Part shown: one piece after another, positions 4,783 to 63,790 of the stretch
How the letters are laid out: each line of letters starts with the position of its first letter
Position numbering within the stretch: position 1 is the stretch's first letter
Assembly: GCA_030710605.1 (NCBI GenBank)
Contig: CP092882.1
Location: 2,065,319-2,129,318 of the forward strand
Reading direction: 5' to 3'
DNA: 64,000 nt
Source of the DNA: Cordylochernes scorpioides
Taxonomy: Eukaryota; Arthropoda; Arachnida; Pseudoscorpiones; Chernetidae
Notes under the pieces: generated by a model
Seen by the model: the letters and a program-made list of their open reading frames with translations, nothing else
Databases searched by the model: none
Told to the model about the DNA's origin: nothing
Position numbers and translations under genes: made by a program

Positions 4783-4964
4783 GGTACCGTGGAACTTCCA
4801 GGATGTCCTCCATTTCGAGCTTCTGCCCCTACACCGAAAACTTGGGAATTCTCTAACGGTCTTTAAGAGAATAAAAGGGAATTTTGATTATTTATGGGGG
4901 ATTCCCCGATATTGCTATGGTTGACTAAGATCAGAAAAATTGTGTAATCGTAAGACTATAGCCT

Positions 4965-5259
4965 GAACTCCGCCCTTGCCGGTCCCAAGCCCGGATGAAA
5001 AAGGAGGAGGGGGGAGCAGTAACAAGCTCGCTAAAAAACCTGGGTTCAGCTGGCCTGGCTGATAGTACTCTGTAAGGTCTCCTAATCCAGGGATACAGGA
5101 TGAGCAGCGTTTGTACTCCATGTCAGAGGCGGCCATTTCTTTTGGAGCTAAGTCGGCCTACCACTGAGTAGTGCTCCCAGTCTTAATGACAAAGGCAGAA
5201 GCATTCTACTTCACCCAGATCCTAATATGATTGAGTGGAAATAAGGAAGAAGAAGAAGG
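4965..5259 (+). repeat. 3' end of a non-LTR retrotransposon
   Basis: Begins with a GCCGGTCCCAAGCCCGG block and ends with a GAA-repeat tail. Shares this block and its terminal ~150 bp with 53445-53690 and the shorter 1212-1290. No coding part remains. Confidence 0.65.
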
Positions 5260-6170: not shown

Positions 6171-6256
6171 CATGTGCCAACATAGACCTGCGCTACCCTC
6201 GATTATATTTTGAGGGTTATAACTGACAGTTTATCTGTATAAATATTTAATGTAAA

Positions 6257-7003
6257 TACACTCATGGACAAAACTTAAGGAAGTTGTACCTTTTAGCATG
6301 TATATCGGGATTCAGACAATAACTCTGAAAGATACACTCATGGACAAAACTTAAGGAAGTTGTACCTTTTAGCATGTATATCGGGATTGAGACAATAACT
6401 CTGAAAGATACACTCATGGACAAAACTTAAGGAAGTTGTACCTTTTAGCATGTATATCGGGATTGAGACAATAACTCTGAAAGATACACTCATGGACAAA
6501 ACTTAAGGAAGTTGTACCTTTTAGCATGTATATCGGGATTGAGACAATAACTCTGAAATATACACTCATGGACAAAACTTAAGGAAGTTGTACCTTTTAG
6601 CATGTATATCGGGATTCAGACAATAACTCTGAAAGATACACTCATGGACAAAACTTAAGGAAGTTGTACCTTTCAACATGTATATCGGGATTTAGACAAT
6701 AACTCTGAAAGATACACTCATGGACAAAACTTAAGGAAGTTGTACCTTTCAACATGTATATCGGGATTGAGACAATAACTCTGAAAGATACACTCTTGGA
6801 CAAAACTTAAGGAAGTTGTACCTTTTAGCATGTATAGCATACAATAACTCTGAAAGATATTACAGTGACCTTTATTGAAGTCACACGAGATAACCAAGCG
6901 TGAACAAAATTGCTCCTGTCTCCTTAAAAAAAAAAATAAAAAAAAAATAATAGACGACCACCGACATCAAATACTTTCCATTTAAGTTTTGTCCATGAAT
7001 GTA
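6257..7003. mobile_element. MITE A with 8-copy 76-bp tandem expansion
   Basis: The left terminal 76 bp is repeated with starts at 6257, 6333, 6409, 6485, 6561, 6637, 6713 and 6789, exactly 76 bp apart; the rest of an ordinary family A element follows and ends with the right inverted terminus near 7003. Each unit starts TACACTCATGG and ends CTCTGAAAGA; the junction falls on a TA dinucleotide also present at that position in single copies. The last unit has a small deletion. Confidence 0.9.
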
Positions 7004-7278
7004 TATCCGACATTGTAGGCTGGGATCTTGGTTATGGTATTTGAATATTCTATGAACATAAGCTTTGAGGACAGTAGAATTCCATTTAAACTTTCGCTTC
7101 GAGCGATGCTCTTCCGCAAACAACAAGGCCAGTTAGGCCTAACTTAAACATAAGACAATAAAGAAATGAAACTATTAAGACCGAAAGAATACTGAAACAT
7201 TTGAAAGTAAATGAAATAATTTTAAATTCTCTTTCGTTTAAAGGACAACACCTAGTTACAGATCCAAAGTGTCCTTTA

Positions 7279-10246: not shown

Positions 10247-10283
10247 GTATACCATGGTTTCGGGGTTTAGCCCTCATCAGTAC
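10247..10283 (-). ncRNA. Hammerhead ribozyme, Penelope type
   Basis: On the minus strand: GTA, CTGATGA, stem II GGG-CTAAAC-CCC, GAA, stem III ACC-AT-GGT, A at the cleavage position (GUA triplet), TAC. The conserved core is intact, stem I has 3 bp, stem III 3 bp with a 2-base loop. It stands alone among AT-rich sequence, presumably a remnant pLTR. Confidence 0.75.
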
Positions 10284-10384
10284 AGGGACGGCTTCTATTT
10301 CAATACGAGACTTTAAAGTCTGCCGAATCTTCCAAAAGAAATGGTAATGCACATACTTAAAAATATATCATTTTTAACTCTATC

Positions 10385-11662
10385 TACATTCATGGACAAA
10401 AATTAAGAAGGTGGAAAGTCTTTGATGTCGCCGGTCGTCTGTTTTTTTTTTTTTTTAAGGAGACAGAGGCTGTTTACACTTGGTTATTTCGTGTGTCTTC
10501 ACAATAAAGGTCACTGTAATATCTTTCAGAGTTATTGTCTCAATCCCGATATACATGCTGAAAGGTACAACTTCCTTAAGTTTTGTCCATGAGTGTATCT
10601 TTCAGAGTTATTGTCTGAATCCTGATATACATGCTAAAAGGTACAACTTCCTTAAGTTTTGTCCATGAGTGTATCTTTCAGAGTTATTGTCTGAATCCTG
10701 ATATACATGCTAAAAGGTACAACTTCCTTAAGTTTTGTCTATGAGTGTATCTTTTAGAGTTATTGTCTGAATCCCGATATACATGTTGAAAGGTACAACT
10801 TCCTTAAGTTTTGTCCATGAGTGTATCTTTCAGAGTTATTGTCTGAATCCTGATATACATGCTAAAAGGTACAACTTCCTTAAGTTTTGTCTATGAGTGT
10901 ATCTTTCAGAGTTATTGTCTGAATCCCGATATACATGTTGAAAGGTACAACTTCCTTAAGTTTTGTCCATGAGTGTATCTTTCAGAGTTATTGTCTCAAT
11001 CCCGATATACATGCTGAAAGGTACAACTTCCTTAAGTTTTGTCCATGAGTGTATCTTTCAGAGTTATTGTCTGAATCCTGATATACATGCTAAAAGGTAC
11101 AACTTCCTTAAGTTTTGTCTATGAGTGTATCTTTCAGAGTTATTGTCTGAATCCCGATATACATACTGAAAGGTACAACTTCCTTAAGTTTTGTCCATGA
11201 GTGTATCTTTCAGAGTTATTGTCTGAATCCCGATATACATACTGAAAGGTACAACTTCCTTAAGTTTTGTCTATGAGTTTATCTTTCAGAGTTATTGTCT
11301 GAATCCCGATATACATACTGAAAGGTACAACTTCCTTAAGTTTTGTCCATGAGTGTATCTTTCAGAGTTATTGTCTGAATCCCGATATACATACTGAAAG
11401 GTACAACTTCCTTAAGTTTTGTCCATGAGTGTATCTTTCAGAGTTATTGTCTGAATCCCGATATACATACTGAAAGGTACAACTTCCTTAAGTTTTGTCC
11501 AAGAGTGTATCTTTCAGAGTTATTGTCTCAATCCCGATATACATGTTGAAAGGTACAACTTCCTTAAGTTTTGTCCATGAGTGTATCTTTCAGAGTTATT
11601 GTCTGAATCCCGATATACATGGTGAAAGGTACAACTTCCTTAAGTTTTGTCTATGAGAGTGT
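10385..11662. mobile_element. MITE A with 15-copy 76-bp tandem array
   Basis: An ordinary family A left part (10385 to ~10560) is followed by 15 copies of the other terminal 76 bp. The CTTCCTTAAGTTTTGTC block recurs every 76 bp from 10571 to 11635. Units differ by single substitutions (GTCC/GTCT, CATGCTG/CATACTG) that form runs of similar variants, showing that blocks of several units were duplicated together. In orientation this is the mirror of the 6257-7003 array. Confidence 0.9.
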
Positions 11663-11898
11663 AATTAATACATGGCACGTAACATTTGGTGAGGAGGTCC
11701 TGTTTATCGAACTCAATGGCCCTGGTTCGAATCTTGTCCCGGCTTTCTTTCTGTTTCAGGAATATTCGATGATGGCTGTGGTCGTTGTACATTAGAATAT
11801 TCTAATAAACCAGATTATTTTGAACGTCTTCATTGCTTATCACCTTATAAAATGTATAAAAAGTACATAAGATAAAGTACAATTTAAATTATAATACA

Positions 11899-12689: not shown

Positions 12690-12930
12690 GAGGTCAAAAA
12701 ACGAACATTGACAAGGTCATCCGTTCAATATCTGATAGGAAATAAAATACTGGTACTTTGGAAGAGAAGACGACTTCCAATAAGCTGGCTAGAAGGGGTC
12801 AAGAAATCTACAGGAAGGCTACAAGATGAGCTGAGAGTGATTGTCTCTAACAAATCAATTAGAGAATATTTGTCCATAGTGTCACCAAAAGTCGACTTGA
12901 TGGATACTAAATTGATGGACGCTTAGTAAT
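12690..12930 (+). pseudogene. LINE reverse transcriptase C-terminal fragment
   Basis: Encodes LWKRRRLPISWLEGVKKSTG followed by a SNKSIREYLSIVSPKVD-like tail. The first part resembles the GRRR.SWL..V...TG block near the C terminus of many arthropod LINE RTs. Similar pieces occur at 48190-48240 and 57080-57200. No intact RT. Confidence 0.5.
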
Positions 12931-12949
12931 ACAAACTTCTGATGTCCTA

Positions 12950-13295
12950 ACTGAGATGTAAAATGACGGGAAGGCCATGTTAATCAGTGGTGAACCCTCC
13001 CATATCTTTCGCCAATTTAATCCACCAGACCGCTTCTCTTAGAGCTCCAATACTGTATTGATCATTCTGCTTATATATGCTACATTGAAGGGTGGAATTT
13101 CAGAAATGGTGTTCAAGTAAACTATGCACATAAGCTTTTAGGACAGCAGAATTATATAGAAATAAATATCCCCCCCCCCCATTGTAATAAGAAGAACAGA
13201 AATTTGTATTACATATAGAAGAAACTTTTTCGTGCCTTAATGGCTTTATTTTTTTGTGTATAGATGGCCCTTTATTGTATTTTAATTAGGTATAA
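12950..13295. repeat. Family H, inverted pair, decayed
   Basis: A minus-strand H copy (12965-13151) contains AGCGGTCTGGT, TTGGCGAAA, GGGAGGGTTCACCACTGAT, but stem III (AGATAT) and the CTGATGA block (CTGATTA) are mutated. A plus-strand tail of the same family (ending TATAGATGGC near 13270) follows, separated by a C run. Confidence 0.6.
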
Positions 13296-22075: not shown

Positions 22076-22284
22076 CAGCGCCGCATAGTGTTATAATATC
22101 ACAGTTGAAATCAATTAAAATACAGAGTAGGTGGGAGAAATTTGTTCATGAAAAAATTATTATAAAAATTGCAATCAAATATGTAAAACATCTTAAAATA
22201 TTAAAGAAAAAAAAAAGAGTTCTATCTTATATTAAAAAAAAAAAAATTGTCATAAGTACATAAAAATATATATTAATAATTGTA

Positions 22285-22570
22285 TGTATTTCTACTATCC
22301 TCAAAGCTTATGTTCATAGTTCATCTAAAATATCCCATTCCAAGAGTCTAGCATCAGTATCACTATAAGGGAAGAAAAAAAAAAAAACGAAAAATGCAAT
22401 ATAACAGCGTTAGGGTAGATTAAACTGGCGAAACCGCTGGGAGGGTTCACCACTGATGAACCAGGCCTTCGCATTAATATTTCCATTGCAGTAAGGACAG
22501 TGTAGAAATTGTTTAATTTTTGAAAGAGAATCATACGCGTCTATAATAGTTTCGAATTTTGATAACAGAT
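22285..22570 (+). repeat. Family H copy
   Basis: Starts at TTTCTACTATCCTCAAAGC, contains CTGGCGAAACCGCTGGGAGG, TTCACCACTGATGA, then ACCAGG, and ends TTTCGAATTTTGATAACAGATGG. Upstream strand A is degraded (AGCGTTAGGG instead of AGCGGTCTGG), and stem II has one mismatch. Confidence 0.75.
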
Positions 22571-23109
22571 GGCACGCTAATGTATCCTTATAAAATAAGT
22601 GTGTATTTAAGGAGGCGTAGATGGCCAGATGGATTCTAAAAACAAACCAACTGATTCTTATTGATTTTTCTCCCCTAACAGGGTTATCAAACGTTGAAAT
22701 TCAATTAACTCTCCTCTAATTGACGTAAATTGGACTAATTTGACCGTTCCTGTGAGTTCTAATTAGTAAAAATAAACTGGTAATTAGCTCTTGAGGAATT
22801 TATAAAATGGTTAGTTTTAAAATATTCTATTGAATTTGATGGAAGGCTATTTATTTTTAATTATGGCACTTTGCTTTTTTGCTCTTTTACTTTTTTTTTA
22901 TCCCATGAAATATGGTGATTTTTGAAGTCAGTAATGGTTTGCATGATAGGTTTAGAACAAAACGATATTTCAGAAGAATATGTGGAAACTGTGGAAGAAA
23001 AATACTTGTCAACTGTATTTGAAAGAAGCAATGCTTGAAGAGTACTTTCAAGGAAACAAAGTATTAGATACATTTTTTATATCTCTCTCCTTTTTAAAAA
23101 GTTGAACTA
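22571..23109. other. Spacer, no gene
   Basis: No coding or repeat signature recognised; short frames only. Confidence 0.4.
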
Positions 23110-23650: not shown

Positions 23651-23764
23651 GCATCATAAAAAAAGTTGAATGTGATATGTAAACATGTCGCCTAAATGAC
23701 AACTTTGTATATTTGCGAAAGAACATTGTGCTTGCTACATTATATAAACTATTTAGGGTATATA

Positions 23765-23978
23765 TAAAATCATGGACAAAACTTAAGGAAGTGAAAAGTT
23801 TTTGATGTTGTCGGTCGTCTGTTTTTTGAAGGAGACAGAGGCAAATTTGTTTACACTTGGTTATCTCGTGTGTATTCAATAAAGGTCACTGTAATATCTT
23901 CAGAGTCATTGTCTGAATTACAATATACAATATACATGCTAAAAGGTACAACTTCCTTAAGTTTTGTCCATGAGTGTA
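23765..23978. mobile_element. MITE family A copy
   Basis: Left ATCATGGACAAAACTTAAGG, right TTAAGTTTTGTCCATGAGTG, with the usual interior and a short T run. Confidence 0.82.
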
Positions 23979-24049
23979 TTTCTACTGTGTACTAGAAGCA
24001 TATGTTCTTTTTTCTCTTAAAAAAAGTCATTTACTCTATTCAATAGCAA

Positions 24050-24205
24050 ATACGGGGTATATAAGAAATTCAGTCTAAAACCATTGTAAATCGGCTTGGA
24101 GATTAAACTGGCGAAACCGCTGGGAGGTTTCACCACTGATGAGTCACGCTTACCCTCTTTCAATTTTTATGTATTGTAGTATAAGGGCTGTATAGAAATA
24201 GGTTA
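24050..24205 (+). repeat. Family H copy, degraded
   Basis: CTGGCGAAACCGCTGGGAGG, then TTTCACCACTGATGAGTCAC: the CTGATGA block is intact but the stem II partner (GTCAC) no longer pairs with CTGGC. Confidence 0.65.
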
Positions 24206-24404
24206 TATAGATTTAAAAGAGAGAAAATTAGTTCTAAAATAATATATTTCAAAGTTTCAGGACATGATCTAGCTGGTATTTACAGTACTAGAGCCCACGT
24301 AGATTCAATGTCATAACTTCATCAACAGTATAACAACTTAAGTTAGATTGTGGAATAATTGCAATGGAGATTTAAAAGGTAAACACCGATAAAATTAATT
24401 GCAA

Positions 24405-26330: not shown

Positions 26331-26918
26331 ATATAAAATTTAAATTTTTGAATTAAAAATATATGAAAAAAATATTTAATTGCATTAATAAAAAATAGGT
26401 GCATTGACTATGATTTCAATGCTATGTAAATATGTACCCTAACTTCGCGAGTCCCCAACTGGGAAACCAAGATTTCGAGGCGACAGCTAAGGTCAGCAGC
26501 GACAAATGAAGGGAAGAAGAAATTAAGCAAATTTCTGCAGACGCGCGCAATGACGCGGAAACAAATTTATATAACCGAGTTGTAGCCTCGAACCAGAGCG
26601 TAAAAAAGCAATTAAGACCAGGCGATCAACCCGTGTTTTCATACCCCACATTCCTGGGGTCATCCCGGGCAATTCTCCGATGGCGGAGGACACAGCGACG
26701 TATGCAAATACGTCTTACACGTGTTTATTATCCCATAAATTTTAACTCTGTTATATATATATATCAAATTTTAAGGTGAAAACAACATCAGGCTTATCTC
26801 CACAAAAATCGTTTAACAATTAGTTCTTCTTTAGTTTAGCTCATTTGTTTAAAATAGACTATTTTTACATATATCCTTAACTTTTAAAAACTTATTTTAT
26901 TTAGAGTTATACTTGGAA
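26331..26918. other. Spacer, no gene
   Basis: 26440-26720 is less AT-rich (CCTGGGGTCATCCCGGG, GATGGCGGAGG) but has no open frame of note. Confidence 0.4.
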
Positions 26919-27561
26919 TACACTCATACAGATAAAATTAAGGAAAGGTCTTTGATGTCGCCGGTCGTCTGTATTTTTGAAGGAGACAGGTTGTTCACAC
27001 TTGGTTTTCTCGTGTGTCTTCAATAAAGGTCACTGTAATATCTTTCAGAGTTATTGTCTGAATCCCGATATACATGCTGAAAGGCACAACTTCCTTAAGT
27101 TTTGTCCTTGAGTGAGTGTATCTTTCAGAGTTATTGTCTGAATCCCGATATACATGCTAAAAGGTACAACTTCCTTAAGTTTTGTCCATGAGTGTATCTT
27201 TCAGAGTTATTGTCTGAATCCCGATATACATGCTAAAAGGTACAACTTCCTTAAGTTTTGTCCATTAGTGTATCTTTCAAAGTTATTGTCTGAATCCCGA
27301 TATACATGGTAAAAGGTACAACTTCCTTAAGTTTTGTCCATGAGTAATCTTTCAGAGTTATTGTCTGAATCCCGATATACATGGTAAAAGGTACAACTTC
27401 CTTAAGTTTTGTCCATGAATGTATCTTTCAGAGTTATTATCTGAATCCCGATATACATGCTAAAAGGTACAACTCCCTTAAGTTTTGTCCATGAGTGTAT
27501 CTTTCAGAGTTAGTGTCTGAATACCGATATACATGCTAAAAGGTACAACTTCCTTAAGTTT
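26919..27561. mobile_element. MITE A with 7-unit tandem array, 3' end lost
   Basis: The left terminus and interior resemble other A copies; then seven ~76-bp terminal units follow (CTTAAGTTTTGTCC blocks at ~27091, 27171, 27247, 27323, 27398, 27474, 27550). One spacing is 80 bp because of an extra GAGT. The final terminus breaks off after TTAAGTTT. Confidence 0.88.
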
Positions 27562-27834: not shown

Positions 27835-27930
27835 TATATTTATATAAAAAGGCGAAAGACAATTTTTTATCGAAATATCTGATGTGTTTTTCTTTCACAT
27901 ATCCAGGTATACGCCTTTTTTATATAAACT
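27835..27930 (+). repeat. Penelope-like terminal fragment
   Basis: Inverted ends ATATAAAAAGGCG and CGCCTTTTTTATATAA, with TTATCGAAATATCTGATG inside; resembles 8380-8470 and 63020-63110. Confidence 0.45.
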
Positions 27931-27954
27931 TATATTATGATGCATAGCGCGCCA

Positions 27955-28110
27955 TGGTATGGTACATTAAACTGGCGAAACCGCTGGGAGGGTTCACCAC
28001 TGATGAGCCAGGCCCTCCCTTTAATTTTTCCATTTCAGTAAGGGCAGTAGAAATTGTTTAATTTTTAAAAGAATCATACGCGTCTCTAATAGTTTCGAAT
28101 ATTCATAAAC
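27955..28110 (+). repeat. Family H copy
   Basis: Strand C (CTGGCGAAACCGCT) and strand B (ACCACTGATGAGCCAG) are intact, stem II pairs perfectly, and the GGGAGGG/CCCTCCC hairpin is present. Strand A reads CATGGTATGGTACATT: stem I (TGGT) and a GTA cleavage triplet are kept, stem III partly lost. Confidence 0.75.
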
Positions 28111-28364
28111 TTATATCAAGAGTTATAGCAGAAAAGGTAGAGACATCAAATATATAAGAAGAATGAACACACAGAAAGAAACACAGAGCGTTAGATGGAG
28201 TTGAACAAAACTTTCGTTCAGGTACATCCTCGCCATTCCACATGTTGGCACACACCAAAATTGCATACTGTGTCATGTTACAAGCCACTGTTGTGTCCAC
28301 AACTCCACTATTGAGTCTTAGCACCACTTCACTTATTACAAAAAAGCATAAAATACCGCAACTC

Positions 28365-30335: not shown

Positions 30336-30597
30336 GGATATGCAAACTTTGTTTTTTAATATCAATCACATAGTGTTGGAGATTTCTATCTTAAAATCTC
30401 TTGGACTGCCAAGGAAACCAATAAGAAAGGAAAACATTTAAACACGAATGTTTTTTTTTTACAAGAGGAGGAATAGCCAGACAACATTTCGATAAAGGAA
30501 ACAAAGCTAACGGTGACGTGATTCTTTATTAAAGTTTCTTTTAAACATAAAACAAACTTCTACCGTCCTTACTGCGATGATAAAATATTGGGAGGGC

Positions 30598-30657
30598 TTG
30601 GCTCATCAGTGGTGAACCCCGCCAGCGGTTTCGCCAATTTTAATCTACCAGACCGCT
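30598..30657 (-). ncRNA. Re-ordered hammerhead core, covaried stem II
   Basis: Minus strand, 5' to 3': AGCGGT (stem III), C (cleavage site), TGGT (stem I), linker, TTGGC (stem II), GAA, ACCGCT (stem III), linker, ACCA (stem I), CTGATGA, GCCAA (stem II). All pairs are Watson-Crick. Stem II uses TTGGC/GCCAA where most copies have CTGGC/GCCAG. The strand order is A-C-B, so the helices form a pseudoknot. Confidence 0.6.
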
Positions 30658-30799
30658 TCTTTAGAGTTCTAATACTGTATTGGATCATTCTGCTTTTATA
30701 TGCTGCACTGAAGGGTGGAATCTTAGTTTTTTAAGATTCCACCCTACAGTCTAGCATATATAAGCAGAATGATCCAATACAGTATTAGAACTCTAAAGA

Positions 30800-30858
30800 A
30801 GCGGTCTGTTAGATTAAATTGGCGAAACTGCTGGGGGGGTTCTCCACTGATGAGCTAA
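30800..30858 (+). ncRNA. Re-ordered hammerhead core, partly damaged
   Basis: AGCGGT, C, TGTT, linker, TTGGC, GAA, ACTGCT, linker, TCCA, CTGATGA, GCTAA. Stem III keeps six pairs with one G-U; stem II keeps five with one G-U; stem I has only two good pairs. The outer hairpin GGGGGGG/CCCTCCC is intact. Confidence 0.5.
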
Positions 30859-31040
30859 GCCCTCCCAATATTTTTATCATCGCAGTAAGGACAGTAGAAG
30901 TTTGTTTTATGTTTAAAAGAAACCTTCTTTCTATAAGTCTTCTATTAATTATATTAATTATGGTATTTAAGAAAATTATATGGAAATAACCTTTCAGGAC
31001 AGTTGAATTATATATAGATATTTTGATTGTGTTTGATTAC

Positions 31041-35470: not shown

Positions 35471-35764
35471 TGAGTATATATAACAAATAACTTATCTCTG
35501 TGTGTGTGTGTATTTAAATTCCATATATGCATATTTACTTTTTTTTATTCCTTTATTTCCTTAATCCTTATTTTTAATTTTAAGCTTTATTGAATTTTGA
35601 CCAATGACAATATAGTTTCCGTTTGATCTTTAGAAGAATATTAGTAAAATTATTTAAAATATTTTTTAGTTTACACAATTAATTGTGTGATAAACATGTA
35701 ATCCCTCGAAATATTAAATAATTTTTAGGTTTTTTTCATAGATCTTGTATGACCTTTTTAACAT

Positions 35765-35910
35765 AGTGATCTAAATTCGAAACTATTATAGACGCGTATG
35801 ATGAGCCAGGCCCATTAATTATTCCATAGCAGTAAGAACAGTAGAAATTGTTTATTTAAATAAAAAAAGAATCATACGCGTCTATAATAGTTTCGAATTT
35901 TGATAGTGAT
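35765..35910. repeat. Rearranged family H fragment
   Basis: The arms ATTCGAAACTATTATAGACG and CGTCTATAATAGTTTCGAAT are inverted; between them are GATGAGCCAGGCCCATTAAT and the AGTAAGAACAGTAGAAATTG part of H. Strands A and C of the ribozyme core are absent. Confidence 0.65.
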
Positions 35911-36074
35911 CTAAACAGTAATAAAATTTACATTTTTACAAAAATTTCCTCAGATTGGTGAACCGTGTCTGATGGTCAAATCTATAATACATTTGAGGAT
36001 CGATTTGTTCAAATGTTCTCTCACTATATAAAAAGCATGTCCCATTTATATCTGGCCTACAAACATATACACAT

Positions 36075-37430: not shown

Positions 37431-37469
37431 TTCTGGATTCTAGCTTATACTTATATAATGGTCTTCGGA

Positions 37470-37835
37470 CCCAACACATATACGGTTAAGGCACATCCAC
37501 CCTACTTTGGTGGAACTTAACCATATTTTTCCAACCCGATCTAGAAGATATGTACCAAACTTCCGTTAAGAAATTATACCTTCAAATGCAAAATTCAAAT
37601 AATCCAACCATACAAGATATTCTACAAAATAAAGGAGATATCAATCCCCGATTCCGACGACCCGGTCCTGACACTTAGTCAAGAGCTCATCGCCCAACAG
37701 CTGCCCTCCTGCAAGGCCTAGGGGGACCACTTCTACTCCACCAACTCGCCATGTGTAAATAGCCAGGACAAGGTGACTCGCGAGCTGTGCTCGAATGTAA
37801 CACCTGTAAATTGAGACGAAATAAATAAAAAAAAT
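37470..37835 (+). pseudogene. Possible LINE 3' end
   Basis: Encodes KKLYLQMQNSNNPTIQDILQ, then NKGDINPRFRRPGPDT before a stop; followed by a ~150-bp less AT-rich 3' part ending AATAAATAAAAAAA. The layout resembles the C terminus and 3' UTR of a non-LTR element, but I cannot name the clade. Confidence 0.4.
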
Positions 37836-39870: not shown

Positions 39871-40255
39871 AAGAAATAAAGAGAAGAGGTCAAGATAGAG
39901 ACGTATGACGTCACTGAGAGAATTGGGCATTCAGGTATAAAATGTTAAGGAAAATAAATCAATTTCATTCTTTATATTTTCACACAGAAGACACATTTTC
40001 TCATACCCGATATTATTTAAAAGTGACCCTTGACCGGACAGTTTCCCGCCTCGAGGAAATGTGCGCCTTGATTGCCGCGCGGAATTTTTCTCACCTTTGA
40101 CCCTTGACCAACAAACAGCTCAGCAACGCTGGATCGCATTCAGTGAGATTTATATTGCGTCCGTTTCGAACCTTCAATGAATGTTGAAATTTTGAGCAAA
40201 TATTTGCGGATTTCAGGTAGAAATATGATTTAGAGCAATTTAATCTTCTTATTTT
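39871..40255. other. Spacer with two DR1-like sites
   Basis: TGACCCTTGACC occurs at 40024-40035 and 40098-40109; each reads GGTCA-A-GGGTCA on the other strand. No gene is visible next to them. Confidence 0.3.
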
Positions 40256-40259
40256 TTAT

Positions 40260-40490
40260 AAAATAAGTCCCTACTGCCCTTCCTTACTGTAATGATAAAT
40301 ATATTAGAAGGGCTTGGCTCACAACAACACATTATTGGTTAACTTCCCAGCGGTTTCGCCAGATATATGTACCAGATAGCCTCAACACAACCGACTATAT
40401 TAAACAAAACAATCAAATATTCGAAGTCTGATAGATTAAACTGGCGAAACCGCTGGGAGGGTTCACCACTGTTCATTTAATAATAATACA
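40260..40490. repeat. Family H fragments, inverted pair
   Basis: Minus-strand copy with CTGGCGAAACCGCTGGGAAG but no CTGATGA; plus-strand copy with CTGGCGAAACCGCTGGGAGG, TTCACCACTG and then a break. Confidence 0.65.
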
Positions 40491-41038
40491 ATAAAAATAT
40501 AGTGTATGCATATATTTGTATTTTGATAGAGAGATAAAATACGCTCAATATATATATGAATGTTCAAATGATGTCAATTTTGTCATAAAATTGTCCACGA
40601 GTCCCCAGCTAAACATATTTTGTAAATTGGGGACATTATACGATAATAACAAGACGAAGGAAGACGAGTATCTTTATTGGTGCATAAGAGCGAGCTTTCG
40701 GGCAAAAGCCCTTCGACTGGCAAGATATAACGACACTATGAACGACATCGATGGCTGTAGAGAATATATACACATATTAATTTACATAAATATAGAAAAA
40801 AGCATGCAAATGGGCAATTTAACTATTTGTAAAAATGAGAGGTAAAAAATAAAAATGGAAAAAATGAAATAGAAATCCTATAGGGTAATAGAAGAGATGC
40901 CAGAACATTAGCTGGAGGAAAGAAATATTAATGAGGCATAATATATGGTTGAAATGGGATATCAAGTATATAAAAGAGAAATTTATACATAAAGGCCAGG
41001 AGAGCTTGACATGCTTCAGGGAGGTCAATATTTTACAG

Positions 41039-41161
41039 TTTTATTTATTTATGCTTATGAGGTGATACAGCAACGTCTTTACAATAAGAGAGGAGACAAA
41101 ATGAATCAAATCTAGAAAAAAGAAGTGAGGACTTCTCGGTCATTAAAGTCTGAGAGGCAAG
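41039..41161 (-). mobile_element. LINE 3' UTR insertion in left Penelope arm
   Basis: 123 bp corresponding to the 3' end of the element at 18425-19078 (CTTGCCTCTCAGACTTTAAT ... CATAAGCATAAATAAATAAA). Flanked by the 8-bp duplication TTTTACAG at 41031-41038 and 41162-41169. The right arm shows the empty site, so the insertion postdates the palindrome. Confidence 0.9.
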
Positions 41162-41188
41162 TTTTACAGTTAAATACAAGGGGGAGGT

Positions 41189-42261
41189 TTAAATAAAGGA
41201 CAGGAGAGGATGATAGGCTTCTGGAAGTTCTATTTTTCTATTGATGCTATTTAGTTTGTGGGATACTATTGATTCTAAAATGAGTCTTTGGTGTAAGATA
41301 TGTATGTGGCTGTAATGTATGGTGGGGTTGTTGATGTTGAACGTGTGGCCCGTGGTCTGCATATGTTGGTAAATGAGGGACTTGGTATCTTGACGGGAAA
41401 TATTGCGGGAATGTTCAGTCATCCTGATGGATACAGATCTACCCGTCTCACCGACGTAAGTGGCAGGGCACTGTTCGCATGAGACGGAGTAGACTGCACC
41501 CACAGAACGAAGGGGGGCAGGAGGAGCTGAGGACTTAGTATGAGGGTGACGGAGGGATGAAAGAAGGTTCGGGGAGTTTTTATATATGGTACGGATGCCA
41601 TAGGATTTGAGTTTTCTGGCTATATCAACAGAGGAGGGGGAGTAAGGGAGAAAACACAATGATCTGTATGTCATGGAAGGATTGGAGGTTGCAGGTGTGT
41701 AAGTATATTTGTTAATGAACCAGAGTGGAAAAGAAGCCATGGAGAGCTGGGTTATAATGCGATTTCTTTCTATTATTTTAAAGATGTCTATGGAACAATG
41801 GGTGGATATTCTTTTTGTAAGAGTTCTAACAATACTGATTTTATGGGAGGTGGGGCAGTGAGAATTGTAATGAGTGTAGCAGGGGGGGCATTGTTTTTTA
41901 TGATAAACTGTAGTGTGAAATGAGGATGGGGTGCGGATAATTAAGATGTCTAGGAATGGGAGAACATGGTTAGTTTCAGTTTCAAGAGTGAAGGAAATAT
42001 CTTGGTTGTAATTATTAAGGGTTGATAGTATGAAGCTCTCCTGACCTTTTTTGCATACACAGAAGACATCATCAATGTACCTGCGCCAGAACTGGATATC
42101 TGTTGGGAGGGTATGAGTAATCCAATTATCTATTCTAGTCATGACAATTTCGGCAATAATGGTAGATAGAGGGCTGCCCATTGGGGAGCCCTTTAACTGT
42201 CTGTAATGGTGCTGTAGGAATGAGAATGTGTTCATGCTTAAGCATGTTTTGGTAAGTTGGA
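41189..42261 (-). CDS. Penelope-like RT / GIY-YIG endonuclease, 5'-truncated
   Basis: About 355 codons still open. Order: TKTCLSMNTFSFLQHHYRQL, GSPMGSPLS, the catalytic FWRRYIDDVFCV box, NHVLPFLDILI, a linker, and a C-terminal GIY-YIG nuclease with GAVYSVSCEQCPATYVGETG and RSVSIRMTEH. The N-terminal half of RT is missing, so the product cannot be active. The frame upstream of 42261 belongs to the opposite arm and is artificial. Run of seven C (as G7 at 41882-41888) keeps the frame. Confidence 0.85.
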
Positions 42262-43257
42262 CAATGGGCAGCCCTCTATCTACCATTATTGCCGAAATTG
42301 TCATGACTAGAATAGATAATTGGATTACTCATACCCTCCCAACAGATATCCAGTTCTGGCGCAGGTACATTGATGATGTCTTCTGTGTATGCAAAAAAGG
42401 TCAGGAGAGCTTCATACTATCAACCCTTAATAATTACAACCAAGATATTTCCTTCACTCTTGAAACTGAAACTAACCATGTTCTCCCATTCCTAGACATC
42501 TTAATTATCCGCACCCCATCCTCATTTCACACTACAGTTTATCATAAAAAACAATGCCCCCCCCTGCTACACTCATTACAATTCTTACTGCCCCACCTCC
42601 CATCAAATCAGTATTGTTAGAACTCTTACAAAAAGAATATCCACCCATTGTTCCATAGACATCTTTAAAATAATAGAAAGAAATCGCATTATAACCCAGC
42701 TCTCCATGGCTTCTTTTCCACTCTGGTTCATTAACAAATATACTTACACACCTGCAACCTCCAATCCTTCCATGACATACAGATCATTGTGTTTTCTCCC
42801 TTACTCCCCCTCCTCTGTTGATATAGCCAGAAAACTCAAATCCTATGGCATCCGTACCATATATAAAAACTCCCCGAACCTTCTTTCATCCCTCCGTCAC
42901 CCTCATACTAAGTCCTCAGCTCCTCCTGCCCCCCTTCGTTCTGTGGGTGCAGTCTACTCCGTCTCATGCGAACAGTGCCCTGCCACTTACGTCGGTGAGA
43001 CGGGTAGATCTGTATCCATCAGGATGACTGAACATTCCCGCAATATTTCCCGTCAAGATACCAAGTCCCTCATTTACCAACATATGCAGACCACGGGCCA
43101 CACGTTCAACATCAACAACCCCACCATACATTACAGCCACATACATATCTTACACCAAAGACTCATTTTAGAATCAATAGTATCCCACAAACTAAATAGC
43201 ATCAATAGAAAAATAGAACTTCCAGAAGCCTATCATCCTCTCCTGTCCTTTATTTAA
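42262..43257 (+). pseudogene. Penelope-like RT / GIY-YIG, right copy, frameshifted
   Basis: Same protein as the left copy starting at MGSPLSTII. A run of eight C at 42557-42564 (seven in the left arm) shifts the frame after KKQCPP; the original frame resumes as a separate reading at about 42700 and runs to the stop at 43257, including YVGETGRS. One insertion is the only visible coding difference between the arms. Confidence 0.87.
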
Positions 43258-43678
43258 ACCTCCCCCTTGTATTTAACTGTAAAATATTGACCTCCCTGAA
43301 GCATGTCAAGCTCTCCTGGCCTTTATGTATAAATTTTTCTTTTATATACTTGATATCCCATTTCAACCATATATTATGCCTCATTAATATTTCTTTCCTC
43401 CAGCTAATGTTCTGGCATCTCTTCTATTACCCTATAGGATTTCTATTTCATTTTTTCCATTTTTATTTTTTACCTCTCATTTTTACAAATAGTTAAATTG
43501 CCCATTTGCATGCTTTTTTCTATATTTATGTAAATTAATATGTGTATATATTCTCTACAGCCATCGATGTCGTTCATAGTGTCGTTATATCTTGCCAGTC
43601 GAAGGGCTTTTGCCCGAAAGCTCGCTCTTATGCACCAATAAAGATACTCGTCTTCCTTCGCCTTGTTATTATCGTATA

Positions 43679-45041
43679 AGTTCATTCCAGGAAGAATTAC
43701 TCTACTATTATTCTAAATTGGGGACAGTCCACGACTTTTCCTTTGAACACCGTGACTTCGAAGCTGTCTTTGGCTGACAAAGGCTTGCCTGGAGTTATGG
43801 TTGTCAGTTGGATTTCCGAAATTGTCAAAAATGGTGTTGTAGTAACCCGAGTATACCTGGTTGCAAAGATGGTCAATAGATGGTACCTATTTCCTTTCAT
43901 TTTGACGGGAGAGATTTTTAAATTTCTTTATTTGAATATACACACACACTTCTTTACTAAATTTAGTATTTAAAATCTGAAATTTCGGGAAGTTTACTTT
44001 ATATATTTACATACAACCTTATGCAACTTTACTTCACATTTACATATCTCCATTGATATACGACTACTTGGTCGGCGCGGTGTCGCTGGCGATATTCTAG
44101 CGAATTTCGCCACTCTAGAATCGCCATGTTTGCTGATATCTTATTCAGGTCTTTGCCCTTGAGAAGATGCAGTTTACAAATGACGCCATCATTTCAAAAT
44201 TTGTTTCTATATGTAAAAATATTTCAAATGTATATAGGCATAAATTTAATTATATCTCTCTATACAATATGAAAACATTTTTATATATAAGAGCAAATTT
44301 AAAAAAAAATCCAAACGAAAATTTTGAATATAGAAAAAAAAATGTCACCAAACTACGAGGACGCCATTTCCCGCCATTTTTAGCCGTGTATCTTCTGCGT
44401 GGGTTTTTTTCTGGTGACTATTGTTAGAGAGGGGGGGTAAAAAGCGAGCTGGTCATCCAGGCAAACAGCCGATTGTGTTGTTTCGTCTGGAAACAAACTA
44501 GGTTCGTTTGGCAAACTTTTTGGGTCGCTTTGGTCTAAATTGTGTTAGCAATCCGTCCTCACCAGCCATCAAAGTCTCTTTAAAGTTCCTTGAAGGAAAT
44601 TTGCCTAGAGGTTCATTTTTAGCGTCTGCTGTAAAAAAATAACCTTTAATGAGCAAAAATAGATATGTTTTTCATCGTATTACAAAAGTGTGTTGTTAGG
44701 TATGTAAAAAACGGTATTTTGCATAGCTACTATTTCAATAATAGCATTTGTATAGTATGTAAATAGGGTGTGATATAAAAGGAAATGAAGATTTGCTGTG
44801 AAAATTCTGATAAACACTATTTTCCATCAGCCCCATACAACTATCAAAGAATTCCACTTCCTTGTTTATAAGCAGAATTGCCCAATACAACAACATACAA
44901 CTCTTAGTTACTGTTTGAGAAAGAGCCATGCTCGAATCACATTATATATTTATAATTATATGTATTTCTACTGTCCTCAAACACAAAACTTATATTGTAA
45001 AACAATATTATAAGTATTATAAGTTACTTTAAGTATTATTT
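43679..45041. other. Spacer, no gene
   Basis: Unique sequence. The 86-codon frame at 44167-44427 shows no motif. 44750-44935 contains an H-like TTTATAAGCAGAATTGCCCA but not the ribozyme core. Confidence 0.4.
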
Positions 45042-45151
45042 ATGAACGGAAAAATACGTCCAGGGTAGCCTAGTGGACATAGCATCTGCCCGGTAAGCGG
45101 AACATTGTGGGTTCGATTCCCATCCCTGGACACTTTTATTTTTCCGTTCAT
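45042..45151 (+). tRNA. tRNA-like sequence inside 15-bp inverted repeats
   Basis: TCCAGGG (45060-45066 region) pairs with CCCTGGA for a 7-bp acceptor stem; box A TAGCCTAGTGG; anticodon arm TCTGC-CCGGTAA-GCGGA giving a GGT (Thr) triplet if read as a tRNA; T arm GTGGG-TTCGATT-CCCAT with box B. The D stem is poor and position 33 is C instead of T, so a functional tRNA is doubtful. Outside the acceptor stem the flanks continue as a perfect inverted repeat ATGAACGGAAAAATA / TATTTTTCCGTTCAT, which is not a normal tRNA gene context. Could be a tRNA-derived mobile unit. Confidence 0.6.
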
Positions 45152-45520: not shown

Positions 45521-45757
45521 TAATATTATAAATTAGGGAAGAACTTTTATTTATAACAAAGCTTATATCCAGAGTTCATTTAAAATACATTTTATCCAAG
45601 AGTTCAGCTTCAGTATCGATATAAAATCAAAACATCTCAATGCAATATTACAATGATATGGTAGATTAAACTGTCGAAACCGCTGGGAGGGTTCAGCATT
45701 GATGAGCCAGGCCCTCCCTTTTATTATTATTTGATCATTGCAGTAAGGGCAATAGAA

Positions 45758-46562: not shown

Positions 46563-46580
46563 AGTATTAGAGCTCTAAGA

Positions 46581-46639
46581 AGCGGTCTGGTAGAATAAAT
46601 TGGCGAAACCGTTGGGAGAATTCACCACTGATGAGCCAA
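46581..46639 (+). ncRNA. Re-ordered hammerhead core, covaried stem II
   Basis: AGCGGT, C, TGGT, linker AGAATAAA, TTGGC, GAA, ACCGTT, linker, ACCA, CTGATGA, GCCAA. Stem I four Watson-Crick pairs; stem II five (TTGGC/GCCAA); stem III five plus a G-U. The LINE insertion left this core intact. Confidence 0.6.
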
Positions 46640-46939
46640 GCCCTTCCATTATTTTATCATTGCAGTAAGAGCAGTAGAAAATTGTTTTATTTCAAAAAGA
46701 ATCATAGGCGTTAAAAATAATTTAAATTTCTCCTATCTAGTTAGATTTTAAACAACAAACAATCCCTATATTGGAACATAATCACAGAAAAGAGGGCCAA
46801 CCTGGATATAATTCAAGACTTCGACATTTTTGTAAACATCAAAAGTTGTTGAAGTCTTCAACTTGAATTAATCCAAAATCCAACTCTCCTACAATTATGG
46901 TCTTCTCTAGAACCTATGGATCTATGAACGAAAAACCTT

Positions 46940-47764: not shown

Positions 47765-47910
47765 AGTACCAACTGGGAGGGTTCACCATTGATGAGCCAA
47801 GCCCTCCCAATATACTTTTTCATCGCAGTAAGGATAGTGGAAGTTTGTATTATGTATAAAAGAAACATTCGTGCTTTTAAATCCTTTCATTTTATATGTA
47901 TAGATGGCGC
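47765..47910 (+). repeat. Family H fragment lacking strand C
   Basis: CTGGGAGGGTTCACCATTGA and GATGAGCCAAGCCCTCCC remain; the GAAAC block is replaced by a GTACC-rich microsatellite. Confidence 0.65.
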
Positions 47911-51692: not shown

Positions 51693-51854
51693 TTCTAACG
51701 GGAAATATGTAAATAAGGGATAAACAACGCGAGTAAATCCATAGTTATTTAAACACATGTGAATATATCATAGAATGCCTTAAATCGTATATATTTAGGA
51801 AAAGGACGAATTTTTATAATCACTAAATAGAAGGAGGGAAAATATTGGAAGGAC

Positions 51855-51913
51855 CTGGCTTATCAGTAGCGAATGCTACCAGTGGTTTCGGCAGTATAAT
51901 CTACTAGACTGCT
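51855..51913 (-). ncRNA. Re-ordered hammerhead core, covaried stem I
   Basis: Part of a diverged H copy (~51835-51925). Minus strand: AGCAGT, C, TAGT, linker, CTGCC, GAA, ACCACT, linker, GCTA, CTGATAA, GCCAG. Stem I changes from TGGT/ACCA to TAGT/GCTA: one pair is exchanged (G-C to A-U), one becomes U-G. CTGATAA and two stem III mismatches suggest it is no longer active. Confidence 0.5.
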
Positions 51914-51925
51914 ACAAATACAATT

Positions 51926-61878: not shown

Positions 61879-62089
61879 AATAAAAAAACATACTTTCTCT
61901 CTCTCTCACCTATAAATGAACAAATTTTTATATCTTTCTCACTCTCACACAAAAACACCATTGAAATATATTACCAAAATATTTTATCTTAAATATATGT
62001 CAGAATATATGGAAATGATTACATAACCTCAATTAAATATACACATTTATTACATAGCACTAGTCTTAGATACAAATTTCAGACAGATA

Positions 62090-62667
62090 TACACTCATGG
62101 AGACAAAACTTAAGGAAGTTGTACCTTTTATCATGTATATCGGGATTCAGATAATAACTCTGAAAGATATTACAGTGACCTTTATTGAAGACACACGAGA
62201 TAACCAAGTGTGTATACACTCATGGACAAAACTTAAGGAAGTTGTACCTCATGTATATCGGGATTCAGAGAATAACTCTGAAATATATTACAGTGACCTT
62301 CATTTGAGACACACGAGATAACCAAGTGTGTATACACTCATGGACAACATTAAAGGAAGTGTACCTTTCAGCATGTATATATCGGGATTCAGACAATAAC
62401 TCTGAAAGATATTTGAAACACAATGACCTTTATTGAAGACACACGAGATAACCAAGTGTGTATACACTTATGGACAAAACTTAAGGAAGTTGTAGCTTTC
62501 AGCATGTATATTGGGATTCAGACAATAACTCTGAAAGATATTACAGTGACTTTTATTGAAGACACACGAGATAACCAAGCGTGAACAACCTCTGTTTCCT
62601 TAAAATAAAAAAGACGACCGACGACATCAAAGACTTTCCACTTTATTAAGTTTTGTCCATGAGTGTA
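62090..62667. mobile_element. MITE A with long-unit tandem repeats
   Basis: TACACTCATGG-type starts at 62090, 62215, 62333 and 62463 (units of 125, 118, 130 bp), the last being a complete element ending at 62667. Here the joint lies after AACCAAGTGTG, again at a TA, deeper inside the element than in the 76-bp arrays. Confidence 0.85.
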
Positions 62668-62734
62668 TATAAACGAAATGAAACTATATTAAGCGCGGAT
62701 TTTTAAAATAAAATAAACTTTCTAACGAACCCTT

Positions 62735-62890
62735 TGTAATGTCGGATATATAAGCGGAATCATCTAATACAGTAGTAGAGCTCTAAACAAAGGTATGGTA
62801 GATTAAACTGGCGAAACTGCTGGGAGGGTTCACCACTGATGAGCCAGGCACTCCCAATAATTTGTGAGAATATTATCCCGTCATATCTGC
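62735..62890 (+). repeat. Family H copy, stem III degraded
   Basis: ATATATAAGCGGAATCATCT, AAAGGTATGGTAGATTAAAC, TGGCGAAACTGCTGGGAGGG, TTCACCACTGATGAGCCAGG. Stems I and II pair perfectly, the cleavage triplet is GTA, stem III only three pairs. Confidence 0.75.
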
Positions 62891-62984: not shown

Positions 62985-63112
62985 TACAGGCATATATACA
63001 TATATCAAGTTTATTTTGCAATAAATTGATAAAGAGGGAGCAATCTCTCGAAATATTTTGAGATTTTTTTTTCTTTACAGATCCAGGTACAACCTTTTAT
63101 ATAAACATATTA
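62985..63112 (+). repeat. Penelope-like terminal fragment
   Basis: AATAAATTGATAAAGAGGGA, GCAATCTCTCGAAATATTTT: same unit as 8370-8470. AGAG/CTCT stem II and GAAA remain, with CUGAUGA changed to TTGATAA. Confidence 0.5.
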
Positions 63113-63114
63113 TG

Positions 63115-63415
63115 AAAATGGCATCTCTTTATCGTACAACTGAAAGTTGCTGATGGCTTTCGCCATCTATCGGAATAAATATAAACTATTCTCGTTGAAT
63201 TCTAATTATTCCAGAATTGGTCAATTACCCATTCTTGATTAATCAAGATAAGCTAACCACGTACTCGTTTCGGGCTGTTGGCCCTCATCAGCGTGGTGCA
63301 AGCTATAATTAGAAATCAACGAGAATAGTTGATATTTATTCCGATAGATGGCGCAAGCCATCAGCAACTTTCAGTTGCACGATAAGGAGATGCCTTTTTC
63401 ATAATTTATGAACCT
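63115..63415. mobile_element. MITE family B with hammerhead insert
   Basis: Complete outer arms (AATGGCATCTCTTTATCGTA ... ACGATAAGGAGATGCCTTTT). The centre is replaced by ~70 bp (~63233-63305) holding a perfect hammerhead. Confidence 0.8.
63256..63297 (-). ncRNA. Type I hammerhead ribozyme, Penelope type
   Basis: Minus strand: ACCACG (stem I), CTGATGA, GGGC-CAACA-GCCC (stem II), GAA, ACGAGT (stem III, two pairs), A at the cleavage position (GUA), CGTGGT (stem I). Stem I is a perfect 6-bp helix, and the core is fully conserved. Shares stem II loop CAACA with 547-588. It sits in the loop of the long family B hairpin. Confidence 0.85.
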
Positions 63416-63526
63416 TATCCCAGTACAATATCACATTTGTACTATTTTTTCACATATATATGTTAGAGATGTTATATATCTGTATATAATTGATCCAAAA
63501 CGAGTATTTTAAATCATATATGAGTA

Positions 63527-63790
63527 TTTCTACTGTCCTCAAAGCTTATGTCCATAGTTCAATCAAAATACCTTTTCCAAGAGTTTAGCGTCAGTATCTA
63601 TATAAAAGGAAAAAAGCCAAATGCAATATTACAGCGGTATGGTAGATTAAACTGGCGAAACCGCTGGGAGGGTTCACCACTGATGAGCCAGGCCCTCCCA
63701 TTATTTTTATCATTGAAGTAAGGGCAGTAGAAAATTGTTTTATTTCAAAAAGAATCATATTTACATAGTATGTTTTGTTTTTTTCAATAT
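63527..63790 (+). repeat. Family H copy, best preserved
   Basis: Starts TTTCTACTGTCCTCAAAGC, contains the complete re-ordered hammerhead core (63633-63691), and continues CATTGAAGTAAGGGCAGTAG, AAAATTGTTTTATTTCAAAA. Short inverted repeats (TTCTACTGTCC / GGGCAGTAGAA) lie about 215 bp apart. Confidence 0.82.
63633..63691 (+). ncRNA. Re-ordered (pseudoknotted) hammerhead core, intact
   Basis: AGCGGT (III), A (cleavage position, GUA triplet), TGGT (I), AGATTAAA, CTGGC (II), GAA, ACCGCT (III), GGGAGGGTTC, ACCA (I), CTGATGA, GCCAG (II). All 15 pairs are Watson-Crick and all core bases match the hammerhead consensus. Strands run A-C-B. GGGAGGG (63666-63672) and CCCTCCC (63693-63699) form a hairpin that presents strand B as its loop, while stem III closes a hairpin that presents TGGT and CTGGC in its loop. 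Confidence 0.65.

What the first reader, a model, noticed from the sequence alone, without database searches (positions are those of the whole stretch)
63633..63691. Hammerhead ribozyme with non-canonical strand order (kissing-hairpin hammerhead) in a dispersed repeat
Seen: 59 nt contain the three hammerhead strands with full core (GUA/GUC triplet, CUGAUGA, GAAA) and perfect stems I (UGGU/ACCA), II (CUGGC/GCCAG) and III (AGCGGU/ACCGCU), in the order III-H17-I, II-GAA-III, I-CUGAUGA-II. This A-C-B order is not a circular permutation of a normal hammerhead: all three helices cross. Two simple hairpins (stem III, and GGGAGGG/CCCTCCC) would present loops that kiss to form stems I and II, which is also suited to pairing between two RNAs. 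Known: hammerhead types I-III all have the A-B-C order, and a discontinuous form is known in mammalian 3' UTRs. Inference: this could be a new ribozyme architecture that standard covariance models would miss. About 12 copies or fragments of the host repeat occur here.
Basis: partly seen in the sequence, partly recalled or inferred. Interest (0 to 1): 0.92.

Follow-up and report, generated by a model that had tools for sequence, protein, structure and literature searches.

The report
Rearranged hammerhead ribozyme in animal-like repeat
A dispersed repeat in what looks like an animal genome carries a hammerhead ribozyme whose three strands come in a rearranged order; that rearrangement was already discovered in environmental sequence data, and seeing it in the DNA of a likely jumping-element family suggests one place where such ribozymes live.

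Summary
At 63633-63699 all three hammerhead blocks are present in the order cleavage site, GAAA, CUGAUGA, with perfect stems I (4 bp), II (5), III (6) and a 7-bp helix joining stems I and II. The architecture is not new: it is the type-SGC hammerhead validated in vitro in 2023 (PMC10085705), whose authors list 583 sequences and none in a genome of a known organism. What looks new is the setting: eukaryotic DNA, in a family with 16 copies or fragments in 64 kb. Two subfamily consensuses differ at 3 of 67 sites: H17 and both partners of one stem II pair (chance 0.0047, a post hoc test). Formal covariation over 14 copies is not significant, only 1 of 14 is perfect, and no relatives were found. 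A TATA-like box precedes the cleavage site by 39-50 nt in 8 of 8 copies examined. Head-to-head copies, an optional 3' tail and two candidate 12-13 bp target duplications resemble Penelope-type pseudo-LTRs, but no linked reverse transcriptase was found. Most likely the element's own transcript is cut just after its promoter. Activity is untested.

The parts
63633..63638 (+). stem III, 3' strand (AGCGGT); start of block S
   Evidence: 6/6 pairs
63639..63639 (+). H17; predicted cleavage between A63639 and U63640
   Evidence: position by analogy with hammerhead numbering (recalled) and with type-SGC cleavage in PMC10085705
63640..63643 (+). stem I, 3' strand (TGGT)
   Evidence: 4/4 pairs
63652..63656 (+). 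stem II, 3' strand (CTGGC); start of block G
   Evidence: subfamily B has TTGGC with GCCAA
63657..63665 (+). GAA plus stem III 5' strand (ACCGCT)
63666..63672 (+). 5' arm of the helix bridging stems I and II (GGGAGGG), joined to stem III with no linker
   Evidence: 7/7 pairs; hairpin also in the MFE fold
63676..63679 (+). stem I, 5' strand (ACCA); start of block C
63680..63686 (+). catalytic core CUGAUGA
63687..63691 (+). stem II, 5' strand (GCCAG)
63693..63699 (+). 3' arm of the bridging helix (CCCTCCC)
63599..63608 (+). TATA-like box; first T 41 nt before the cleavage site
   Evidence: TATA-like box in 8 of 8 copies examined
63505..63781 (+). extent of the repeat copy as shared with other copies
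   Evidence: self-BLAST
46563..46729 (+). subfamily B copy; stems I-III and core intact, bridging helix 5/7
30531..30926 (.). two subfamily B copies, head to head, 398-bp palindrome; minus copy has core and stems I-III intact
27951..28104 (+). 5'-truncated copy with 3' tail; candidate 12-bp target duplication ATAAACTTATAT at 27924-27935 and 28105-28116
35776..35902 (+). 3' fragment with inverted tail at its 5' end; candidate 13-bp target duplication ATAGTGATCTAAA at 35763-35775 and 35903-35915
40252..40473 (.). second head-to-head pair, decayed copies
62784..62864 (+). 3'-truncated copy, core intact, stem III 4/6
22269..22582 (+). near full-length subfamily A copy with tail, stems partly decayed
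23975..24264 (+). divergent copy with upstream region, stems decayed
45523..45757 (+). copy with upstream region, core mutated (TTGATGA)
12927..13169 (-). copy with upstream region, core mutated (CTGATTA)
47766..47863 (+). 5'-truncated fragment
51839..51917 (-). divergent copy; one stem I G-C replaced by A-U on both sides; core CTGATAA
36850..36956 (+). 3' fragment

Best explanation
The feature is a type-SGC (non-circularly permuted) hammerhead ribozyme encoded in eukaryotic DNA by a dispersed, probably non-autonomous retroelement. Shown by sequence: the complete fold in one copy, the family, a TATA-like box upstream, head-to-head copies and an optional 3' tail. Inferred: RNA polymerase II starts downstream of the TATA box; two hairpins form (stem III and the bridging helix); their loops kiss to make stems I and II; the RNA cuts itself between H17 and stem I, roughly 10-20 nt after the likely start. 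The 5' product would hold the cap and the AGCGGU-H strand; the 3' product would begin with a 5'-OH. The host element most resembles a Penelope-type pseudo-LTR unit. Confidence: type-SGC fold about 0.9; cleaves in cis about 0.8; Penelope-type host about 0.45.
For: Full core and 22 of 22 pairs at 63633-63699. Four strict SGC hits against 0.003 expected per shuffled window. Same block order, bridging helix and, in a few published members, the same direct junction of stem III and bridging helix (PMC10085705). Subfamily consensuses A and B differ at 3 of 67 sites: H17 A/C and both sides of one stem II pair, C-G to U-A; 0.0047 of simulated triple substitutions keep everything paired with such a two-sided change. 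The ribozyme segment is better conserved than its flanks in 5 of 7 pairs tested (one-sided p 0.00037 to 0.041) and than the downstream segment in 42 of 45 pairs. TATA-like box 39-50 nt before the cleavage site in 8 of 8 copies examined, one by a looser pattern. Head-to-head copies, tail, and candidate 12-13 bp duplications at 2 of 3 full tails match passages on Penelope pseudo-LTRs (PMC3846280).
Against: Covariation over 14 of 16 copies is no better than shuffles: 82.1% of cells paired against 82.4%, 3 two-sided pairs against a mean of 3.0; partner columns slid by 1-3 give 4-6 two-sided pairs, although only 35-55% of cells pair there. The A/B comparison was made after seeing the data; U-A is present in only 3 copies, and copies with H17 = C but the C-G type of stem II strand exist (24136, 51864, 40469), so it is one event. 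Only 1 of 14 copies is perfect; 2 more keep core and stems I-III. Two of the 7 conservation pairs are not significant (p 0.27, 0.33), and pairs share members. Random anchors share a 12-mer in 354 of 3000 trials, so target duplications rest on position, not length; the third tail copy and both head-to-head pairs show no duplication of 10 or more. The one Penelope-type reverse transcriptase in the window has no SGC motif within its arms. No RNA data; no relatives found.
Confidence: 0.78

Rival explanations
1. The element is a metazoan retrozyme-like unit: tandem or paired copies are cut at two sites, and the released RNA is ligated into a circular RNA.
For: Animal retrozymes are short, low-GC, ribozyme-bearing repeats whose target duplications, when present, exceed 4 bp (PMC7229834 passages). 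Same-strand neighbours exist: 62784-62864 with 63620-63753, and 45639-45757 with 46577-46700.
Against: No regular head-to-tail array of about 150-450 bp with this motif appears in the window; these neighbours are 844 and about 930 bp apart and one partner of each is decayed. The animal retrozymes in the passages seen carry type I hammerheads.
Confidence: 0.2
2. The repeat is a DNA transposon or MITE in which the ribozyme is a passenger.
For: Short inverted match TTTCTACTGTCCT at 63527-63539 and AGGGCAGTAGAAA at 63721-63733, and palindromic copies.
Against: Homology runs past both arms (63505-63781), so the arms are not at the ends. Several 5'-truncated copies; candidate duplications of 12 and 13 bp.
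Confidence: 0.12
3. The ribozyme works between two RNAs: one copy's hairpin loop pairs with the loop of another copy, so the cis fold is not used.
For: Stem III and the bridging helix are joined by no linker, a case whose fit to the known crystal structure PMC10085705 calls not obvious. Head-to-head and neighbouring copies exist.
Against: Published type-SGC ribozymes cleave during transcription with the same four helices.
Confidence: 0.12
4. The resemblance is chance: a conserved repeat block with another role.
For: Covariation is not significant. Some loop letters, such as the TT of TTC, are as conserved as core letters.
Against: About 0.003 loose hits per shuffled window; the extra helix sits where the published class has it; the subfamily differences preserve the fold. 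ARAGORN predicts no tRNA there.
Confidence: 0.06

Closest known systems
Type-SGC hammerhead ribozyme (HRIMA-1 motif and type-SGC variants), Eckert et al. 2023, PMC10085705
   Same: Block order S-G-C, CUGAnGA and GAAA cores, stems I-III, helix bridging stems I and II, and, as in a few members, no nucleotide between stem III and that helix.
   Different: Linker between stems I and II is 8 nt here, typically 3 there; stem I is 4 bp here, 5 bp in HRIMA-1; [quoted passage not shown]
Type I hammerheads of Penelope-like elements (as told in passages of PMC7229834 and PMC11167929; Cervera and de la Pena 2014 itself not held)
   Same: Hammerhead inside a terminal unit of a retroelement. Penelope pseudo-LTRs also have a TATA box, head-to-head inverted units, an optional tail and short target duplications (PMC3846280 passages).
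   Different: Those are minimal type I hammerheads (order C-G-S); here S-G-C with a 6-bp stem III. No reverse transcriptase is linked to this unit in the window.
Metazoan non-LTR retrozymes (PMC7229834 passages)
   Same: Short, AT-rich, ribozyme-bearing non-autonomous repeats in animals.
   Different: Tandem arrays with type I hammerheads; here dispersed single or head-to-head copies with type-SGC.

Membership tests
type-SGC hammerhead ribozyme | Blocks in 5'-3' order S, G, C | tested here: met
   4 strict copies, 0 hits in any other order
type-SGC hammerhead ribozyme | Conserved core CUGAnGA, GAAA, A-U closing pair of stem III, H17 not G | tested here: met
   met at 63633-63699; in 7 of 14 copies in all (8 of 14 without the closing pair)
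type-SGC hammerhead ribozyme | Stems I, II, III and a helix bridging stems I and II | tested here: met
   4/4, 5/5, 6/6, 7/7 pairs at 63633-63699; complete in 1 of 14 copies
type-SGC hammerhead ribozyme | Covariation of the helices | tested here: inconclusive
   not above shuffles on 14 copies; one compensatory stem II pair separates the subfamilies (0.0047, post hoc)
type-SGC hammerhead ribozyme | Self-cleavage 3' of H17, abolished by mutation of the core G | not testable with these tools
   needs in vitro transcription
Penelope-like element pseudo-LTR | TATA-type promoter in the unit | tested here: met
   TATA-like box in 8 of 8 copies examined (of 16); promoter activity untested
Penelope-like element pseudo-LTR | Head-to-head inverted units with a palindrome at the junction; optional 3' tail | tested here: met
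   pairs at 30531-30926 (palindromic centre) and 40252-40473; tail after 3 copies and inverted at 35798
Penelope-like element pseudo-LTR | Short target duplications | tested here: inconclusive
   12 bp at the 28000 copy and 13 bp at the 35799 copy, both at tail ends; not seen at the third tail copy or the head-to-head pairs, and random anchors often give matches as long
Penelope-like element pseudo-LTR | Linked reverse transcriptase with GIY-YIG domain | tested here: not met
   the one such gene (41189-43257) has no copy within its arms (40636-43679); the nearest copies end 163 bp beyond one side. So similar, not filed as a member
metazoan retrozyme | Tandem array of short units each with a hammerhead | tested here: not met
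   copies dispersed; same-strand neighbours 844 bp or more apart
LTR retrozyme | LTRs with 4-bp duplications, PBS and PPT | not tested
   only target duplications were examined (candidates 12 and 13 bp); PBS and PPT were not searched

The most novel reading that the evidence does not exclude
As far as the named literature searches show, this is the first type-SGC hammerhead seen in the DNA of a cellular genome: the promoter-proximal ribozyme of a Penelope-type pseudo-LTR family. The non-circular order could have arisen from a tandem array of ordinary type I units (C-G-S repeated) that kept block S of one unit, G of the next and C of the third, which gives S-G-C by loss alone, without moving blocks. 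Retroelements of this kind, rather than only RNA replicons, could then be a source of the permuted ribozymes seen in metatranscriptomes.
Probability: 0.3. Interest if true: 0.75.

Novelty: new variant of a known kind. Interest (0 to 1): 0.6.

Why it matters
Type-SGC hammerheads were reported from environmental sequences whose hosts are unknown. A family fixed in eukaryotic DNA gives them a genome, a likely promoter, probably many more copies for covariation (16 copies or fragments in 64 kb here), and a mobile element whose RNA can be followed. It would make the origin of the permutation testable, and offers a compact member with no linker between stem III and the bridging helix, the case whose geometry PMC10085705 leaves open.

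Tried and rejected
New architecture: rejected after finding the 2023 paper. Searches of the held library for other reports: 'type-SGC' with hammerhead, 1 paper, the same one; 'non-circular permutation' with hammerhead, 3 papers, the other two seen as listings only; hammerhead with permuted and retrotransposon from 2023, 5 papers, of which PMC10085705 was read, three seen in passages and one not opened; hammerhead ribozyme with SINE, insect and retrotransposon, 7 papers, not opened for this question beyond PMC11722881. None seen reports a genomic type-SGC. Only open-licence papers are held, so a report elsewhere could exist.

tRNA-derived SINE: ARAGORN finds one tRNA in the window, at 45058-45133, not here. 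Canonical partner copy: the strict descriptor finds no C-G-S, G-S-C or S-C-G version of this repeat. LTR retrotransposon: disfavoured, since the two candidate duplications are 12-13 bp.

Target duplications by length alone: given up, since random anchors share a 12-mer in 354 of 3000 trials, a 15-mer in 226 of 3000, and closer windows a 13-mer in 238 of 3000. A 15-mer flanking the 51864 copy is therefore not claimed. In one search, 15 copies were scanned; 2 gave a shared stretch of 12 or more (28000 and 51864). The 35799 one needed closer windows, tried there because the repeat was visible in the printed sequence. At the 28000 copy about 15-20 unmatched bases lie between the duplication and the start of homology.

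Searches for relatives gave nothing: viral contigs patterns, genome contigs patterns, phages and plasmids, the reverse transcriptase in viral contigs. None of these collections is of animal genomes. The organism was not identified.

Rows dropped: the covariation alignment used 14 of the 16 copies; 35793 and 36850 were left out because they lack blocks S and G. The Fisher test used 7 of 21 possible pairs of 7 copies. Segment identities were made for 45 pairs of 10 copies; upstream parts of some are not homologous, so only the downstream comparison is quoted: ribozyme higher in 42 of 45, lower in 63680/46628, 30847/30609 and 46628/28000. The anchor of the 12988 copy was a few bases off; its TATA distance, printed as 47, is 50. 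The copy 24136 has a deletion that blurs its cleavage position.

Full report
What is there. The three hammerhead blocks lie at 63633-63691 in the order cleavage-site block, GAAA block, CUGAUGA block. A 7-bp helix, GGGAGGG 63666-63672 with CCCTCCC 63693-63699, brackets the last block, so the unit really ends at 63699. All 22 pairs are standard. The two other copies folded gave z 0.25 and -1.39 (118 and 23 of 200 as good), so the stability of this copy is not typical.

More than chance. A strict descriptor for all six block orders finds four places in the window, all SGC and all copies of this repeat: 27955-28010, 46583-46638 and 63635-63690 on plus, 30655-30599 on minus. In 6692 dinucleotide shuffles it finds 19 SGC and 7 to 11 of each other order. 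The four are not independent, but one alone has about 0.003 expected.

The family. nhmmer finds 16 copies or fragments at E <= 0.01 in its first pass. Of the 14 aligned, one is perfect (63680). Two more, 30609 minus and 46628, keep the core and stems I-III. CUGAUGA and GAA are whole in 8 of 14, and the full core with the closing pair of stem III in 7 of 14; the rest are decayed or truncated. Over these 14 rows the structure is not supported by covariation: 82.1% of cells paired against 82.4% in shuffles, score 0.133 against 0.128, 3 two-sided pairs against a mean of 3.0. Sliding the partner columns lowers pairing to 35-55% and the score to 0.043-0.112, but gives 4-6 two-sided pairs. This is expected if most changes are decay after insertion, but it is a result against a strong claim.

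The better signal is between subfamily consensuses. A (H17 = A, CTGGC with GCCAG) and B (H17 = C, TTGGC with GCCAA) differ at three of 67 sites, one at the tolerant H17 and two that compensate each other in stem II. Only 0.0047 of simulated triple substitutions keep all pairs and the core with such a two-sided change; 0.051 keep all pairs and the core at all. Limits: the consensuses were made by eye from 5 and 4 copies, the test was framed after seeing them, the U-A pair stands in 3 copies, and mixed states exist, such as H17 = C with the CTGGC strand in 24136 and 40469, and GCCAA with CTGGC in 40320. So it is one compensatory event. The divergent copy 51864 shows a two-sided change in stem I, G-C to A-U, though its core is mutated. 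The ribozyme segment is better conserved than its flanks in 5 of 7 pairs tested (p 0.00037 to 0.041); in two pairs, both subfamily B copies against 12988, it is not (p 0.33, 0.27). The pairs share members, so the p values are not independent.

What it is. The order and the bridging helix match the type-SGC hammerhead of PMC10085705 (abstract and parts 1-6 of 8 read). That paper reports 583 type-SGC sequences, cleavage at the predicted site, loss with a core G mutation, and, for one member, need for all four helices by compensatory mutation. [quoted passage not shown] It also notes that in a few members stem III and the bridging helix are joined with no nucleotide, whose fit to the known crystal structure is not obvious; here ACCGCT runs straight into GGGAGGG. 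Differences: 8 nt rather than typically 3 between stems I and II, and a 4-bp stem I rather than the 5 bp of HRIMA-1.

The host element. The window is AT-rich (34.6% G+C) with a partial U6atac match, retroelement frames and many repeats, so it is eukaryotic; no whole genome is held. In 8 of 8 copies examined a TATA-like box lies 39-50 nt before the predicted cleavage site; in one, 22453, only a looser pattern matched. With the usual 25-31 nt from TATA box to start (recalled), cleavage would fall about 10-20 nt into the transcript. Several copies are 5'-truncated. Two head-to-head pairs exist, 30531-30926 and 40252-40473, the first with a strong palindrome at its centre. Three copies carry a tail of about 35 bp after the 3' end, and one of them has the tail inverted at its 5' side. 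Candidate target duplications sit at the ends of two of these tails: 12 bp at the 28000 copy, 13 bp at the 35799 copy. Long matches between flanks are common at random anchors in this window, so position is the argument.

Passages of PMC3846280 describe Penelope pseudo-LTRs with a TATA box, head-to-head inverted copies with palindromes, an optional 31-bp tail and duplications of 8-10 bp or none. Passages of PMC7229834 and PMC11167929 place hammerheads, minimal type I variants in the former's words, in Penelope-like elements. A reverse transcriptase frame with a weak GIY-YIG match lies at 41189-43257 in the same head-to-head palindrome form. Both Pfam matches are below their cut-offs (27.3 against 29.6 bits; 15.7 and 17.2 against 22.6), and 'Penelope-type' rests on their combination and on recall. 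A 13-bp match lies in its flanks, on one side 35 bp beyond the arm. No ribozyme copy lies within its arms; the nearest, 40252-40473, ends 163 bp outside one of them. So the link is by likeness only, and membership is not claimed.

How it most likely works. A transcript begins downstream of the TATA box, folds as two hairpins whose loops pair, and cuts itself after H17. This would remove the cap with a leader of about 10-20 nt and leave a 5'-OH RNA holding nearly all of the ribozyme. Every step after the sequence itself is inference. Whether the trimmed RNA is the template for reverse transcription, is circularised, or is a by-product cannot be told here.

Limits. No RNA data, no other animal genome to search, no relatives in the collections tried. 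The organism is unknown; 'animal, probably arthropod' is a guess from repeat and protein content, not a test.

Noticed in passing
63257-63296 (-): Ordinary type I hammerhead with a 2-bp stem III, inside a foldback element with 101-nt arms, 63109-63209 and 63305-63405.
   Followed up: partly
548-587 (-): Second ordinary type I hammerhead with core CUGAAGA; Rfam HH9 at 27.5 bits, below its cut-off of 52.
   Followed up: partly
10247-10283 (-): Hammerhead-like stretch with a self-complementary stem III (ACCATGGT), which might act as a dimer; seen, not listed by the relaxed type I scan.
   Followed up: no
4961-5015 (+): Type-P1 twister-like sequence, 48.4 bits against a cut-off of 67.2, E 1.1e-7, about 430 bp after a gag/pol-like reading frame.
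   Followed up: no
40636-43679: Head-to-head palindrome of a Penelope-type reverse transcriptase gene, inner arms 97% alike; 13-bp match between its flanks.
   Followed up: partly
2466-4532 (+): Gag-like frame followed by aspartyl protease and partial reverse transcriptase matches.
   Followed up: no
6250-7006, 10362-11663, 26918-27561, 62089-62540: Elements with internal tandem units of about 76-78 bp; related stretches abut the 5' side of two ribozyme copies (23758-23979, 62462-62674).
   Followed up: no
37460-37530 (+): Partial U6atac match (model 53-124 of 126), above the Rfam cut-off.
   Followed up: no
24463 (-) and 60144 (-): Shared motif CTGATGATGAGCTAAC...TTGAAAGCTTGC in two places, not a complete hammerhead.
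   Followed up: no
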